From IMG/VR virus record IMGVR_UViG_3300020156_000008, positions 1 through 49,526 of that record: DNA of 49,526 nt, one strand, 5' to 3'. Shown piece by piece: positions 14,029 to 43,157 of the stretch. Every line of letters starts with the position of its first letter. Within the stretch, counting starts at the first letter, position 1. The notes beneath the pieces were generated by a model. The model had not been told where the DNA came from. It saw only the letters and a list, made by a program, of their open reading frames with translations, and searched no databases. The position numbers were made by a program, and so were the translations under genes. This DNA comes from a virus.

Positions 14029-14064
14029 TTGCATGTAATTCTCGACTCCCTCATACTATGAGGG
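14029..14064 (+). promoter_or_regulatory. Candidate promoter with a dyad over its -10
   Basis: TTGCAT (14029-14034), a 17-bp spacer and CATACT (14052-14057) precede the gene at 14113. The -10 lies inside a perfect inverted repeat CCCTCAT-ACT-ATGAGGG (14048-14064), so the site could be an operator or a 5' hairpin. Confidence 0.35.
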
Positions 14065-14112: not shown

Positions 14113-14349
14113 ATGTCTCGTGTAAACCCGAACATGGCCGCTCTTGCTAGTGGTCTTACGAATCCCATCGACGTCACGACGCCGGCAACGAACAAGCTGA
14201 AGATTCGAGCAGTGCGTGATGCGCTAACGTCCGAAGAGTCGAATCAGAGTGAGCTGCGCCTCTTCACTGACAAGATGGACCCTGCTGCTCGACTCGGCCT
14301 GTACGTGATCCTGACTGCCCTAGAAAACGCGGTCGCGAACGAAGCCTGA
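14113..14349 (+). CDS. Small unknown protein (78 aa)
   Basis: ATG at 14113 after AAAGGATGACTC. A 78-residue Ala/Thr/Asn-rich product with an amphipathic C-terminal helix (GLYVILTALENAVANEA). It is isolated from the genes on both sides by untranslated sequence with dyads, so it may be separately controlled. Unknown function. Confidence 0.7.
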   Translation: MSRVNPNMAALASGLTNPIDVTTPATNKLKIRAVRDALTSEESNQSELRLFTDKMDPAARLGLYVILTALENAVANEA

Positions 14350-14358
14350 TCGACGAGA

Positions 14359-14521
14359 TTGGTTGTTGAGTCTCTGGTCCTCCCGAGATTCCGACCAACG
14401 GGGGAGGGGATTTATGGCGAGTGGGTCCCCTCCCCTACGAATACTGACGGTGTCCTCTAGTCCCGTCAGTCGGTGAGTCACAGACTAGCGATGGTGCTCT
14501 TCAGGATGTCTGTGACTCACC
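14359..14521 (+). ncRNA. Candidate structured RNA: four consecutive stem-loops
   Basis: The gap between 14350 and 14545 holds four back-to-back inverted repeats. SL1: TTGGT / ACCAA (14359-14363 with 14394-14398) continued by GAGTCTC / GAGATTC (68-74 with 85-91, one G-T pair). SL2: GGGGAGGGGA / TCCCCTCCCC (14401-14410 with 14426-14435, perfect). SL3: ACTGACGG / CCGTCAGT (14443-14450 with 14463-14470, perfect). SL4: GGTGAGTCACAGAC / GTCTGTGACTCACC (14472-14485 with 14508-14521, perfect). None has a clear U-tract, so they are not ordinary terminators. It could be a 5' regulatory RNA for the kinase gene, a free RNA, or an origin-type DNA structure. Confidence 0.5.
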
Positions 14522-14545
14522 ACCTTTTCAACCGGGAGCAAGCGC

Positions 14546-15142
14546 ATGAAAATCAGAATAGTTACCTTCAATGGACCGATGAAATGTGGTAAAAGTTGGG
14601 TATGCGATCGACTTCCAGAACGCTTCCCCAATACGCGATTCGAGAGGGTTTCCTTCCAGGATGCACTCGCTCGTGGGACACTGGCACTGCTCGGACTCAG
14701 TCCTGCCATTTATGGAACAGACGCTTATGCTGAGTTCAAAGAGACTCAGTACTACGGGCGCACTGGTCGGGAATGGATGATTTTCTTCAGTGAATCAGCT
14801 AAGGTCGGCAACCCGACCATTGACATGGCTGACGAGCATCCAAACATTTGGACTGATGTGATGCTAGACTCGATTCGTCGTCAGCATTTCACTCACCGCA
14901 GCGGTACTGTCTATCTCGCTGATTCCAATGGCTTCGGCGACGAACTGGACTACCTGAGAGGACGCGAAGATGTCGATGTGCTTGCTTGCTCAATTGAGCC
15001 TCCTGATTCGCCTGTCCGTGGTAGCACATACCCTAATGACAGCCGATTCAATCTCGCACATAAATGTGCTGTTGTTGCAGAAGATTCCAACCTACTGCTC
15101 GACCGCGTCAGTGCCGCACTCCAAAGAAGGAACTGGGTATAA
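14546..15142 (+). CDS. Deoxynucleoside monophosphate kinase-like protein
   Basis: A 198-residue P-loop protein: GPMKCGKSW at 10-18, then SFQDALARG and a YYGRTGREWMIFFSE segment typical of phage dNMP kinases (T4 gene 1 type). It would phosphorylate dNMPs to feed phage DNA synthesis. GGGAGCAAG precedes the ATG. It is the first gene after the stem-loop array, and its stop overlaps the next start by one base (TAATG). Confidence 0.78.
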   Translation: MKIRIVTFNGPMKCGKSWVCDRLPERFPNTRFERVSFQDALARGTLALLGLSPAIYGTDAYAEFKETQYYGRTGREWMIFFSESAKVGNPTIDMADEHPNIWTDVMLDSIRRQHFTHRSGTVYLADSNGFGDELDYLRGREDVDVLACSIEPPDSPVRGSTYPNDSRFNLAHKCAVVAEDSNLLLDRVSAALQRRNWV

Positions 15143-16596
15143 TGAATCAACAGCCGGCCTCCCCATATAATGAATGGCACGAGTTGCTGGCTGATGCTCG
15201 ATTCTCTCCTTCTTCAGAAGCATTGCAAGATTACCTGAAACTGTGTGAGGGGTTGGAATCACCAACCCCTTATCACATTTGGAGCTTTATCAGCCTGATG
15301 GCTGCGCTCTGTGGTGATAACATTGCATTGACTCACGGTCCTATGGGCCGCGAACGTCTGAATCTTGGAATCGTACTCACCGGCATACCTGCGATTCGCA
15401 AATCAACCGCACTGACTGTGATGCAAAAATTCGCCGAAGGACTCCCAATCGCATACGGCCCCACGGATACGGCTGGTCAGCGACAGGGAATCATGAGCGC
15501 GATGATGCCACGGTGGCAGAAGGACCAGATCGATGAAACCTCGCCGACGGATATCAGCGTTACGACGCTTGAGGAACTTGCTCAATTCGATTCGGACTCG
15601 ATTGTCGCCAAACTCCCCAATCCGCTGGACCGGCGATCGTCTGAGATTTATTTCGTTGCGAAGGAACTTGGCCGACTCATCGCCTCTTCCTCGCGTGAGT
15701 TATTCGATTTCTTCACCGACGGAATGGACGGCGAAACCTTTCATTATCAACTGAAGAATCAAGTCACCAAAATCCACAATCCCTTGATGAACTTGTTGGG
15801 AGCAACGACTCCGACTTCATTGGGAACGATGCTGCCAAAAGGCGGTGAATCGCATGGATTTCTCAGCCGACTCATTTTCGTGCACGCTCCTCACATTGAT
15901 AAGATTGTTCCGATTCCAAAGCAATGGGGCGATCGTGAGCAGCATATTCGCAAGACGTTGCACGAACGAATCCTTCAGGTACTCGCCAATAGTCAGGAAG
16001 AAATAGGGCTGAGTCAAGGGGCTCGGGAGACCTATGAAGACTTGTATGTCTATCAACCTGCTACGTCTGACATACGCCTTCAGGCATATATGGGTAGACG
16101 GGCAAAGCATCTGCTCAAGATTGCCGCTATCCTCGCGTTGCTTCGCTGTGATGCCTCTGTGTCGGTCATAGCGGCTGACCTGCGGCTTTCTCACGCCTTG
16201 CTGGTACTGACAGAGCGGACGATGGATCGCGCGTTCTATGGCCTTGATATGGGCCTTTATTCGCGGGTCTTATGCGCCGTCACGGAATTAGCGGAGGGTT
16301 CACCGGAAGGGAGGGTATCGGTCAATGAGATTCAACAGTATGCCGGACACCTTGCTCCTAAGCATACGTTGAATGAGTTACTTGAATCACTTGTTATCCA
16401 AGGCAAGCTGAAAGCAGTGAGCCAGCGAGCGGATCATGCCGAGTGGACACTGAATACTGAAATGTTTGACTTAGGTACTAGTCGACTCCGCAATGCCTTC
16501 AAGGCAGGAGGCGAAGGTTTGCCGAAGGCAGATGAATTCAGGACTCACAAAGTTGGCGTCCAAGCCGTAGTCACAAAAAAGGGGAACGCTGGTTGA
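15142..16596 (+). CDS. DUF3987-like primase/helicase candidate (484 aa)
   Basis: The frame opens at 15064, but ATG at 15142 (MNQQPASPYN) overlaps the kinase stop and has AAGAAGGAAC upstream, so I use it. The N-terminal part has a P-loop-like GIPAIRKST (81-89), and the overall order resembles DUF3987 proteins, which are often annotated as the primase/helicase of phage and plasmid replicons. The middle contains FFTDGMDGE and LLGATTPTSL segments typical of that family. The C-terminal 120 residues look like a winged-helix region. No other primase is visible, so this is the best candidate. Confidence 0.65.
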   Translation: MNQQPASPYNEWHELLADARFSPSSEALQDYLKLCEGLESPTPYHIWSFISLMAALCGDNIALTHGPMGRERLNLGIVLTGIPAIRKSTALTVMQKFAEGLPIAYGPTDTAGQRQGIMSAMMPRWQKDQIDETSPTDISVTTLEELAQFDSDSIVAKLPNPLDRRSSEIYFVAKELGRLIASSSRELFDFFTDGMDGETFHYQLKNQVTKIHNPLMNLLGATTPTSLGTMLPKGGESHGFLSRLIFVHAPHIDKIVPIPKQWGDREQHIRKTLHERILQVLANSQEEIGLSQGARETYEDLYVYQPATSDIRLQAYMGRRAKHLLKIAAILALLRCDASVSVIAADLRLSHALLVLTERTMDRAFYGLDMGLYSRVLCAVTELAEGSPEGRVSVNEIQQYAGHLAPKHTLNELLESLVIQGKLKAVSQRADHAEWTLNTEMFDLGTSRLRNAFKAGGEGLPKADEFRTHKVGVQAVVTKKGNAG

Positions 16597-16615
16597 ATCC
16601 GGCGCTCCCCTTTTT
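16576..16615. terminator. Bidirectional terminator between convergent arms
   Basis: AAAAAGGGGAACGCTGG, loop TTGAAT, CCGGCGCTCCCCTTTTT: a 17-bp stem with two G-T pairs flanked by A and T runs, so it can stop transcription from both sides. It overlaps the last codons of the gene ending at 16596 and lies 12 bases before the end of the leftward arm. Confidence 0.9.
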
Positions 16616-27370: not shown

Positions 27371-27979
27371 TCAGGCCCAAGAACCCCACACGCCAGCCGC
27401 TTTCCGCCTCGTGTAGACAGTATTAGTTGAAGTTGTCAGCGAAATAACTCGCTGAATCACGAACTCTTCATCGCTAGTATTCTTACCAGCAATGACCCAA
27501 AGTGCCCCGTCAGCAACTCCAGCTAGAGCAGCAGGCATTGCATTCGCATTGCGGTCAGTCGCATACTGACCCGACTCCGTAGCTGCATCAAGATCATCAA
27601 TGAACGTCAGTGTCCCTGACAATCGAGCAGCCGTTCGAATCGTAATATCACCCGCTTGTCCGTTCGGATTATCGATGATGATTCCATCACCGGGAATCAA
27701 TTTGCGAAGTCGAAATGTCTTGTCAGCGACTCGCACCATGATTCCCAGTAAATCCGAAGCAAACTTGATTTGCCCCAGTTCTGAATCAGCTCGAACAAAC
27801 AATTGCTTAAGCTGATCCAGATTCGGAATACGGAATCCACCTCGCTTCTTGCCATTATGCAAGCGAAGTTCACTACGCTGTGAATCAACAGTCACCTGCC
27901 CCGGCGGCCCAACGTAATCATCGTTGACAGCCGTTGTGTTGCGCGGAAACTGGACTCGCTTGTTCGATGCATCAACCAT
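27371..27979 (-). CDS. Short tail fibre or fibre adaptor (202 aa)
   Basis: Contains PPGQVTVDSQRSELRLHNGK, the same attachment-type repeat as the fibre downstream, then a beta-rich middle and an end (YTRRKAAGVWGSWA) typical of the 'W..W' closing motif of fibre repeats. Probably a fibre subunit or an adaptor that anchors the 553-aa fibre. Confidence 0.7.
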   Translation of the reverse strand: MVDASNKRVQFPRNTTAVNDDYVGPPGQVTVDSQRSELRLHNGKKRGGFRIPNLDQLKQLFVRADSELGQIKFASDLLGIMVRVADKTFRLRKLIPGDGIIIDNPNGQAGDITIRTAARLSGTLTFIDDLDAATESGQYATDRNANAMPAALAGVADGALWVIAGKNTSDEEFVIQRVISLTTSTNTVYTRRKAAGVWGSWA

Positions 27980-37864: not shown

Positions 37865-38139
37865 AGCTGAATCCTTTAGCTGCACGACCCCTCTGAGCCG
37901 TGGGTTCCCCTGCGCCATTCCCACTCGACTACTCCGTCCCCGCCCTTTGCTCCGCTTCGCTCCGCTGCGGGGACTCCGCTTAACGTCGAGCGTGAACCTT
38001 GGCTCTGGTGACATGCGCTCCGGGAAGAATCGCTGACGCTCGCTAGTTGGCCTTGGGTACCCCAAGGCCAACTCGCAAGCTAGCTTATCTACCCGTCACT
38101 CCTGTCAACCCACTAGTCTCAACCGGGGCCGCCGTTGAT
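37865..38139. other. Untranslated gap with a strong hairpin
   Basis: 275 bases between the portal stop and the small basic gene. It holds a perfect 11-bp stem GTTGGCCTTGG / CCAAGGCCAAC with loop GTACC (38046-38072) and a longer-range CCCCGC ... GCGGGG pair. GC-rich, with no promoter I can defend. Possibly a processing site or terminator inside the late transcript. Confidence 0.5.
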
Positions 38140-40047
38140 TTACTGAATGATTCCAGCCATTCCAGCAGGCATCGATTCCGTAGAAGCTCCTGTGGCGGCT
38201 CCTGTTGTGGGATCAACTGCGGTCTGTTCGTTGGAGAGAGTTGGTTGAATCATGAATTGACCAAGATCAGTTCCGATGTTGAGGAGCAGACTGTAGAGAG
38301 TCCACAGTCCCATCATGTCAATTCCCTTGGCTGCGTCTGGATTCTGAATCAGTGCGAAGATCAACGATCGAATCTGCTCGGCTGCGGCTTCGCGCGTGAT
38401 TTGGCCTAGGCCGCTGTTCAGCAAGTCTGCGACTTCTTCGTCGGTCACAGCGGTGAACTGACTCTTCTCCTTGTCGTACTTAGCAATGTTTCGATACTGC
38501 GCCATTCTGGTTGGCAACATCAGTGATGAATCAAGCATACGCACGAACATATGAAGTTTACGCATGCTGCCTTGCATGACAGCTGAGACCTGACTCGTGA
38601 TTGCTCTGTCCATGCCGGCAATCTGAGCAGGCAAAGATTGATTCGGGAAGAACTGCTTCATCAGATCCAGAACGCTGCCGGCGTCGGCCATGTTCTGTCT
38701 GGAATCAAGATTGTTATCAAGCTTTACGAGTCCGCTACGCACATCACGACCACCGATCTTTGAAACCAGTAGACCTGAGGTTTCACCATTCTGAATCTTG
38801 CTGACGTCGAACATGGTAGGGTCAACGCCTTTCAAGCCCCAGATTTGTGAACGAATCCCTTCAATGTGGGTATTGATGAGGAAGCTCATGAATCGTTGGA
38901 ATGGCTTAATGTGTTCAGCGATACTGCGGGCTGCTTCTTTTAGTTCATCCACATTGAGTCGTGCCATGTAAATAGGAAGTTCGGTCGCTTCTTCCATTTT
39001 ATCCATGGCAACGATCCAACGACCATCCACAAGTGTGAATCGATATAGCTGAATCGGTGATTCCTCGTTGTCTTCGTCATACAGATCGAACTGCTTTTCA
39101 TTGATCCAGCAGTACATGAGGATCACTTCATGGCCATCGATGTCAACAACGGAATCAGCATCTGTCCCGAGACCATACTTGGCCCAGTCAACATTACTGA
39201 CTCCATTACCAGACTTCGTGTCACCGCCATCTGATTCAATATTTGTCTGACTCGGAGGATATCGATAATATGATGCCTTACCGAACTCGTACGAATTCGA
39301 CCCATCGCCAGGACGCTCACTGAAGATTTTGTCGAGATTGATGAGTCCATTTTGCTCAGCCTGTCGAATCAACCACAGACGATTACGAACTCCGGCAATA
39401 GCTGCCCACTCGCCATCCTTGTGCAACTTCTGCATGTCGACAACTGACGGATCGTACATGAAATTGTAGACGTCAATTGATTCACACTTGTTACCTTCTG
39501 ACTCATCGAGCTTATTACCCGGAGTCCAGGTGATATGAAAACCACCGAGGTTATACTTGTGCAGTGCCCGCATGGCGCAGGTAATATTGAAATAGTAATT
39601 GTTGATCTTGGTGTCTTGATTCATCTTGGCCGTCAACTTCTTGACAGCTTCGGTCTTGCTGCGCTGACCTGGATCAGCATAGAAGTTGCCACCCAAGGGT
39701 GCAAAGACCTCTGAGAAGAATGCAACAGCGTCATCGATATGCGCTTGCGCTACCGGCAGATTCACAGGAATAGCCTGCGACTTGCCAGTCATATCTTCTC
39801 GTGAATCACGCATGGAATCTTCTTCGCTAAGTCTCTGCCAAGTCGACACCATTTGGTCGATACGAGCGAAACGCTGAATGCGATTCCCGCGTTTAGGTCT
39901 TTCCTTGTCCAACTTGGACTTCAGGTAATCCACTAGCTGCGTGTGTTGCTCGTCGGAGAGCATTGATTCATCAACAGCCTCACCAGAAGGCTGCGCCACA
40001 TCCTTGTCAGGATCGAACTGCATGCGTGCGTCATCTTTGTCGTACAT
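38140..40047 (-). CDS. Portal protein (635 aa)
   Basis: Placed directly after TerL in the transcript, length typical of podovirus portals. Features: YKQ-like acidic start, a TGKSQAIPVNLPVAQAHID segment that occurs in portals before the clip region, a long helix-rich centre, and a C-terminal helical tail ending in a Gly/Thr-rich end. The dodecameric ring is where the terminase docks. AGGAGAGAATCAT precedes the ATG. Confidence 0.82.
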   Translation of the reverse strand: MYDKDDARMQFDPDKDVAQPSGEAVDESMLSDEQHTQLVDYLKSKLDKERPKRGNRIQRFARIDQMVSTWQRLSEEDSMRDSREDMTGKSQAIPVNLPVAQAHIDDAVAFFSEVFAPLGGNFYADPGQRSKTEAVKKLTAKMNQDTKINNYYFNITCAMRALHKYNLGGFHITWTPGNKLDESEGNKCESIDVYNFMYDPSVVDMQKLHKDGEWAAIAGVRNRLWLIRQAEQNGLINLDKIFSERPGDGSNSYEFGKASYYRYPPSQTNIESDGGDTKSGNGVSNVDWAKYGLGTDADSVVDIDGHEVILMYCWINEKQFDLYDEDNEESPIQLYRFTLVDGRWIVAMDKMEEATELPIYMARLNVDELKEAARSIAEHIKPFQRFMSFLINTHIEGIRSQIWGLKGVDPTMFDVSKIQNGETSGLLVSKIGGRDVRSGLVKLDNNLDSRQNMADAGSVLDLMKQFFPNQSLPAQIAGMDRAITSQVSAVMQGSMRKLHMFVRMLDSSLMLPTRMAQYRNIAKYDKEKSQFTAVTDEEVADLLNSGLGQITREAAAEQIRSLIFALIQNPDAAKGIDMMGLWTLYSLLLNIGTDLGQFMIQPTLSNEQTAVDPTTGAATGASTESMPAGMAGIIQ

Positions 40048-42475: not shown

Positions 42476-42887
42476 TCCAGCCTCCTATAAAGTGCCGAAT
42501 CTGTCCACCCCCACGCGGGATAGGGGTGGTCTTATTAACGGGCCGACTCCCGGCTGCGGAAGGGGGGCTCTACCCCCCGGCATTCGGATTCGGAGCAGTA
42601 GGGGGGAGGCCCTTTCTTGCTCGAAGCGGTTGTGTTAGCGTGCGAGTCGCAGACGAGCCATGAGCCGAAGGCGAATCAAGCATGCGTCGCAGACTCCGCT
42701 CTTGCGAGCCAACGGCGAGCCAAGCAAATAAGTAGTGAGCGTAAGCGAACGCCGCTTCCGATTCGGAGCGAGCGCAGCGAGCGGAGAAAATTTCCGAGAT
42801 TCAATCTTGAACCTTTGAGTCAAGATTGAATCTCGGCAGTGATTCAGAGTTAAGGAAGGTTTCGGACCCTGCGGGAGTCCACGCTGT
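42476..42887. other. Structured untranslated gap upstream of the terminase genes
   Basis: About 410 bases with no gene I trust. It holds CCACCCC / GGGGTGG (42505-42511 with 42523-42529), GGGGGG-CTCTA-CCCCCC (42562-42578) and the 17-bp hairpin listed separately. GC-rich, with short repeated words (GATTCGGAG, GCGAGC). It may contain late control signals; no promoter found. Confidence 0.5.
42794..42836 (-). terminator. Perfect 17-bp hairpin, probable terminator
   Basis: CCGAGATTCAATCTTGA and its exact reverse complement flank a 9-base loop. Reading leftward it is followed by AAATTTTC, a weak U-tract. It would separate the small genes at 42888-43787 from the packaging genes. Confidence 0.55.
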
Positions 42888-43157
42888 TCAGAATCTGCTG
42901 GCAAGCCATGATTCGGCAAGCCATGCGACGGGTTGAATCGCTAACGCGGCTATCAGCGGCCACGCAATCAAGCACACAACCATTTCCACCTCGCTGCCGC
43001 CCTTCACCCAGCGTTCCACACCTTCCCAGCCGCTGCCGCTGCCACTGGCCTTGGCCTTGCTCTGCTCTTTGACTCGACGAGAGAGTGACCATGTGAGAGT
43101 CAATCGGCCAAGTTTGACGAAATGAAGTCCACCCACTTTGAAAACGCGCTTCCTCAT
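42888..43157 (-). CDS. Small protein with C-terminal membrane helix (89 aa)
   Basis: GGAGG lies before ATG 43157 (MRKRVFKVGG). A basic front and Gly/Ser linker end in a hydrophobic segment (VVCLIAWPLIAALAIQPVAW). Probably tail-anchored in the inner membrane. Unknown function. Confidence 0.58.
   Translation of the reverse strand: MRKRVFKVGGLHFVKLGRLTLTWSLSRRVKEQSKAKASGSGSGWEGVERWVKGGSEVEMVVCLIAWPLIAALAIQPVAWLAESWLASRF

What the first reader, a model, noticed from the sequence alone, without database searches (positions are those of the whole stretch)
14359..14521. Four consecutive stem-loops in an untranslated gap: candidate new structured RNA
Three of the four stems are perfect (10, 8 and 14 bp) and the fourth has one wobble pair and a small internal loop; together they fill 163 bases with little spacing. 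There is no U-tract and no coding frame. It sits between a small gene and the dNMP kinase, inside the replication module. Options are a leader RNA sensing nucleotides, a stable free RNA, a packaging-type RNA, or a cruciform-forming origin. The second stem also has G-runs that could form a quadruplex.
Basis: partly seen in the sequence, partly recalled or inferred. Interest (0 to 1): 0.68.

Follow-up and report, generated by a model that had tools for sequence, protein, structure and literature searches.

The report
Phage hairpin array ending a gene
Four strong RNA hairpins lie right after a small conserved phage gene and just before a nucleotide-kinase gene; related phages keep hairpins there, several as ordinary transcription terminators, so this looks like an unusually elaborate mRNA end or attenuator rather than a new sensing RNA.

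Summary
Four stem-loops fill 14359-14521. This is the most stable 163-nt stretch of the window on either strand, and three clustered perfect stems appear in 0 of 200 whole-window shuffles. G-U pairs favour the + strand transcript.

Seven related phage contigs keep the order DNA polymerase, ~75-aa gene, gap, kinase, primase-helicase (the L014 small gene only marginally). The gap sequence is not conserved (identity no better than shuffled). Its position and hairpin content mostly are. L011 has four tandem hairpins of unrelated sequence with almost the same offsets. In seven of eight phages the last strong hairpin ends 23-34 nt before the kinase start. In L011 and L093, and roughly in L013 and L014, it is followed by a U-rich run like an intrinsic terminator. 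In L011/L093/L013 this hairpin shows two double-sided pair changes. In the window the U-tract is degenerate (ACC-UUUU-C).

Best reading: a 3'-end/attenuator element of the small gene's mRNA that stabilises it and reduces or uncouples expression of the kinase-primase genes. A riboswitch, packaging RNA or origin is not supported. Weak, below-threshold Rfam matches and CCUCC loops leave open an anti-Shine-Dalgarno RNA released from this 3' UTR. No transcript data exist.

The parts
14113..14349 (+). small conserved gene (78 aa), unknown family; hairpins start 10 nt after its stop
   Evidence: clear relatives in 6 contigs (E 5e-18 or better), marginal in L014 (E 0.0013); no Pfam/PHROG family; AlphaFold2 predicts four helices, pLDDT 69
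14029..14059 (+). weak promoter-like TTGCAT-19-TACTAT before the small gene
   Evidence: read from sequence; stronger equivalents at the same place in L011 (TTGACA-17-CATTAT), L107 (TTGACA-16-TACACT), L101; the window itself is not significant
14359..14398 (+). hairpin 1, loop contains CCUCC
   Evidence: -18.1 kcal/mol; CCUCC at 14379
14400..14436 (+). hairpin 2, 16 pairs including G-U pairs
   Evidence: -28.3 kcal/mol
14443..14470 (+). hairpin 3, 8 bp perfect stem
   Evidence: -11.6 kcal/mol
14472..14521 (+). hairpin 4 (terminal), 14 bp perfect stem, 22-nt loop
   Evidence: -26.4 kcal/mol; pattern search, 1 match, 0 expected
14522..14529 (+). degenerate U-tract ACCUUUUC
   Evidence: aligned with the L011 terminator U-tract by sequence alone
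14534..14538 (+). Shine-Dalgarno-like GGGAG of the kinase
   Evidence: sequence
14546..15142 (+). deoxynucleoside monophosphate kinase gene
   Evidence: phrog_139, E 3.6e-11; about 47% identity to Rhizobium phage proteins
15142..16596 (+). DUF3987 primase-helicase gene
   Evidence: phrog_14296 and PF13148; relatives

Best explanation
The four hairpins are the 3' untranslated end of the small gene's mRNA and an intercistronic control element. Shown: they are predicted stable in the + transcript and sit just after the stop codon, and relatives keep hairpins there in place of sequence, the last one 23-34 nt before the kinase start in seven of eight phages. Inferred: the small gene is transcribed at a high level. 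RNA polymerase partly terminates, or ribonucleases stop, at the terminal hairpin, leaving a small-gene mRNA capped at its 3' end by hairpins that block 3' exonucleases, while a fraction reads through into kinase and primase-helicase. In L011, L093, L013 and L014 the terminal hairpin resembles an intrinsic terminator. In the window it has a poor U-tract, so stabilisation, processing and partial attenuation probably outweigh full termination.
For: Architecture conserved without sequence: L011 (71% polymerase identity) has four hairpins at +9..+40, +41..+69, +74..+111, +112..+166 from the stop, against +10..+49, +51..+87, +94..+121, +123..+172 in the window; MFE z -6.9. Gap identity 0.60 against 0.58 for shuffled gaps. 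U count in the 8 nt after the terminal hairpin: L011 5, L093 5, L013 5, L014 4, window 4. Terminal hairpin of L011/L093/L013: 11 of 11 pairs kept in all, two double-sided changes, slid controls 23-55% paired. Promoter-like sites before the small gene: L011, L101 and L107 score above every polymerase-CDS window. + strand MFE is lower than - in 7 of 7 gaps. Known precedents: terminator hairpins of -28 to -22 kcal/mol with 14-nt stems raise upstream mRNA levels (PMC11696848); intercistronic stem-loops set operon stoichiometry by processing (PMC10311766).
Against: No transcript data. The window's own promoter-like site is not significant. The U-tract after hairpin 4 is short and 3 nt away, and the loop is long for an intrinsic terminator. 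L107 has only a weak hairpin; L012 and L101 have no U-tract; the L012 gap taken strictly has z +0.2 though -2.3 with its flanks. The L014 small gene is only a marginal match (E 0.0013). One terminator would suffice, so four hairpins are not fully explained.
Confidence: 0.58

Rival explanations
1. RNase III-type processing site, as in T7-like early operons: a long transcript is cut within the coaxially stacked stems, giving separate stable mRNAs for the small gene and for kinase-primase.
For: Hairpins 1-2 and 3-4 abut with one nt between them (0 in L011), so stacked helices could exceed 20 bp; poor U-tract in the window.
Against: Single stems are 8-16 bp, short for RNase III; L011 and L093 have terminator-like ends; no cleavage data.
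Confidence: 0.15
2. The array is released as a 3'-UTR-derived trans-acting RNA whose CCUCC loops bind Shine-Dalgarno sequences, as in alphaproteobacterial alpha-r14/CcsR RNAs.
For: Best weak Rfam matches are CcsR1 and BjrC80 in the window (E 0.017, 0.054) and ar14 and CcsR1 in L011 (E 0.0054, 0.02). CCUCC in hairpin loops: 3 observed, 0.32 expected, P 0.004; L011 count reached by 0.3% of control windows, window count by 4.8%. CcsR1-4 come from the 3' UTR of a small-protein gene (PMC8625941); alpha-r14 keeps aSD loops while its stems vary (PMC10746234).
Against: All Rfam scores are far below gathering; a control structured region gives E 0.058 to an unrelated family. No CCUCC loop in the other six relatives. 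The full CCUCCUCCC motif is absent. The motif test was post hoc. Host unknown.
Confidence: 0.12
3. Cis-acting leader (riboswitch-like or translational switch) of the kinase gene, possibly through loops pairing with its GGGAG ribosome site.
For: Directly upstream of the kinase; CUCCC of loop 1 is complementary to GGGAG (sequence).
Against: No conserved core, no alternative fold shown, gap shrinks to one hairpin in L013/L014.
Confidence: 0.06
4. DNA-level element, such as a cruciform replication origin.
For: Palindromic arms; next to replication genes.
Against: Folds use G-U pairs and are stronger on one strand; most relatives have fewer or shorter palindromes.
Confidence: 0.03

Closest known systems
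Intrinsic (Rho-independent) terminators acting also as mRNA 3' stabilisers
   Same: Strong GC-rich hairpin after a stop codon, terminal hairpin -26 kcal/mol with 14 bp; relatives carry U-rich runs
   Different: Four tandem hairpins; long loops; degenerate U-tract in the window
Selective RNA processing and stabilisation stem-loops in operons (cip-cel, PMC10311766); T7 RNase III sites (own knowledge)
   Same: Stem-loops between co-oriented genes of different presumed expression need
   Different: No processing shown; stems shorter than classic RNase III substrates
Alphaproteobacterial anti-SD sRNAs alpha-r14 (NfeR1) and CcsR1-4 (PMC10746234, PMC8625941)
   Same: Tandem hairpins with variable stems, some CCUCC loops, downstream of a small-protein gene, terminator at the end in L011
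   Different: Below Rfam threshold, no CCUCCUCCC motif, not conserved in six relatives; the small protein was not identified as DUF1127 (no Pfam match)

Membership tests
Intrinsic terminator | stable GC-rich hairpin | tested here: met
   hairpin 4 -26.4 kcal/mol, 14 bp
Intrinsic terminator | U-rich tract immediately 3' of the stem | tested here: inconclusive
   window ACCUUUUC, three nt off the stem; met in L011 and L093, partly in L013 and L014
Intrinsic terminator | transcript 3' ends at the site | not testable with these tools
   no RNA data
Known Rfam family | score at or above gathering threshold | tested here: not met
   no match in the window or in seven relatives
alpha-r14 / CcsR anti-SD sRNA | CCUCCUCCC motif in hairpin loops | tested here: not met
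   only CCUCC in one window loop and two L011 loops
alpha-r14 / CcsR anti-SD sRNA | Rfam model score | tested here: not met
   18.6-24.7 bits against gathering 58.8-65.3
New conserved structured RNA family (riboswitch-like) | conserved sequence core plus covarying stems across relatives | tested here: not met
   gap identity equals shuffled; structure varies from 4 hairpins to 1
RNase III processing site | cleavage in a duplex of about two turns | not testable with these tools
   longest single stem 16 pairs with G-U

The most novel reading that the evidence does not exclude
The array is a phage-encoded, 3'-UTR-derived small RNA that carries anti-Shine-Dalgarno loops and acts in trans on host or phage mRNAs, copying the logic of alphaproteobacterial alpha-r14/CcsR RNAs.
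Probability: 0.1. Interest if true: 0.75.

Novelty: new variant of a known kind. Interest (0 to 1): 0.36.

Why it matters
It shows a clade of uncultivated phages in which one intercistronic place keeps its hairpins while the sequence drifts freely, ranging from one terminator-like hairpin to a tandem array of four. That is a clean natural series for testing what extra hairpins add to a phage mRNA end, and a warning that lack of sequence covariation does not mean lack of a selected RNA structure.

Tried and rejected
Rfam at gathering threshold, tRNA/tmRNA search: nothing. DNA similarity in phages and plasmids: nothing significant. Rhizobium phages with the nearest reference kinase have no gap upstream of it, so they give no test. 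EBPR podovirus 3 gap: probably coding (a cysteine-rich open frame read from the sequence) rather than structured RNA. Structure search of the small protein: model pLDDT 69, no significant hit. The extra domain of the L013 copy has no phage hit. Weak CcsR1/ar14 matches kept only as a rival, because a control region gives similar E-values. Quadruplex rejected: too few unpaired G-runs. Formal covariation of all four hairpins is not possible: only L011 shares the layout and no sequence alignment puts the stems in register.

Full report
Observation. The window is a 49,526-base virus record. Between the 78-aa gene 14113-14349 and the dNMP kinase 14546-15142 lie four stem-loops that fill 14359-14521. 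The fold of 14340-14540 is -94.4 kcal/mol on the + strand, z -4.9, with one of 200 shuffles as good. The reverse strand folds at -82.6. Among 4938 windows of 163 nt over both strands this place is the most stable, and also the most extreme after correction for GC. The whole window has 41 perfect stems of at least 8 bp with short loops, against 17 in shuffles; a cluster of three totalling 32 bp never arose in 200 shuffles. The feature is real.

Relatives. DNA searches found nothing. Protein profiles found contigs that share the module: L011 (71% polymerase identity), L012 (68%), L093 (65%), L101 (56%), L013 (58%, partial polymerase), then L107 (49% in its best tblastn segment) and L014 (35%). 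Gene tables of these loci show polymerase, a small gene, a gap, a kinase and a DUF3987 primase-helicase in the same order and strand. The small gene is clearly homologous in six contigs (E 5e-18 or better) and marginal in L014 (E 0.0013).

The gap. Its length runs 196, 193, 159, 112, 110, 69, 71 and 57 nt in the stretches analysed. Its sequence is not conserved: identity with the window is 0.55-0.61, equal to shuffled gaps at 0.58-0.64, while flanking genes keep 0.60-0.65. Yet L011 has four tandem hairpins with nearly the same offsets from the stop codon and the same spacing pattern, two abutting pairs separated by 4-6 nt, at z -6.9. L093 has two main hairpins, L101 two, L013 and L014 one, and L012 a hairpin over the stop codon plus a long branched stem. 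L107 has only a weak one. The last strong hairpin (-21 to -34 kcal/mol) ends 24, 26, 31, 34, 24, 24 and 23 nt before the kinase start in window, L011, L012, L093, L101, L013 and L014. I chose the hairpin boundaries in L012 and L014 by hand from the folds.

Terminator character. In L011 and L093 the terminal stem runs into UUUUUC; L013 has UUUCAUUU and L014 UUUCU. The L011, L093 and L013 stems share GCGGCC..GGCCGC. Eleven pairs are kept in all three, with two pairs changed on both sides and two on one side; slid controls keep 23-55%. The shuffle control reaches the observed value in 50 of 500, as three sequences give little power, and the arms were aligned by structure. In the window a sequence-only alignment sets CCUUUUC against the L011 U-tract. 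So the window's fourth hairpin probably occupies the terminator position, with a weaker U-tract. A standard bidirectional terminator does exist elsewhere in the window, at 16576-16615.

Transcription unit. A promoter-like site lies before the small gene in several relatives; L011, L101 and L107 score above all 100-nt windows of their own polymerase genes, L012, L093 and L013 are at 4-6%, and the window and L014 are not significant. This suggests, but does not show, that the small gene has its own promoter and an own 3' end. The small protein has no known family and no informative fold match, so why it would need a special mRNA end is unknown.

Strand. The + fold is stronger than the - fold in seven of seven gaps, and uses more G-U pairs in six of seven. 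This points to RNA rather than a DNA cruciform.

Mechanism. I infer partial termination or 3'-end processing at the array, with hairpins shielding the small-gene mRNA, and reduced flow into kinase and primase-helicase. Precedents: strong terminator hairpins of -28 to -22 kcal/mol with 14-nt stems raise upstream transcript levels (PMC11696848); intercistronic stem-loops set stoichiometry by processing and stabilisation (PMC10311766).

An open alternative. At a permissive threshold the array matches CcsR1 (E 0.017) and BjrC80 (0.054), and the L011 array matches ar14 (0.0054) and CcsR1 (0.02), all alphaproteobacterial sRNAs, all far below gathering scores. CCUCC occurs in hairpin loops three times against 0.32 expected, but only in the window and L011; control windows reach the window's count in 4.8% and that of L011 in 0.3%. 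CcsR1-4 are cut from the 3' UTR of a small-protein mRNA (PMC8625941), and alpha-r14 RNAs keep anti-SD loops while stems vary (PMC10746234). The parallel is attractive, was found after the fact, and rests on two phages; a control region gave E 0.058 to an unrelated family.

Verdict. Real structure, probably an elaborate form of an ordinary 3'-end/attenuator element. Not shown: any transcript, termination, processing or regulation.

Noticed in passing
window 37936-38080, - strand: Second most stable region by energy: a 20-nt-arm hairpin (38038-38080, 90% complementary) and a GUCCCCGC..GCGGGGAC hairpin after the 635-aa gene 38140-40047, without a U-tract.
   Followed up: partly
window 42476-43100, + strand: Apparently non-coding stretch with a 17-bp perfect hairpin (42794-42836) and repeated AGCGGAGCGA-like low-complexity sequence.
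   Followed up: no
window 16576-16615: Classic bidirectional terminator AAAAAGGGGAACGC..GCGCTCCCCTTTTT between the convergent primase and the 1684-aa gene.
   Followed up: no
L013 1511-2464: The small gene is duplicated in tandem; the second copy (225 aa) carries an extra C-terminal part of about 140 residues with no family or phage hit.
   Followed up: partly
window 27661-27860, - strand: Second strongest GC-corrected folding signal, inside coding sequence (27371-27979).
   Followed up: no
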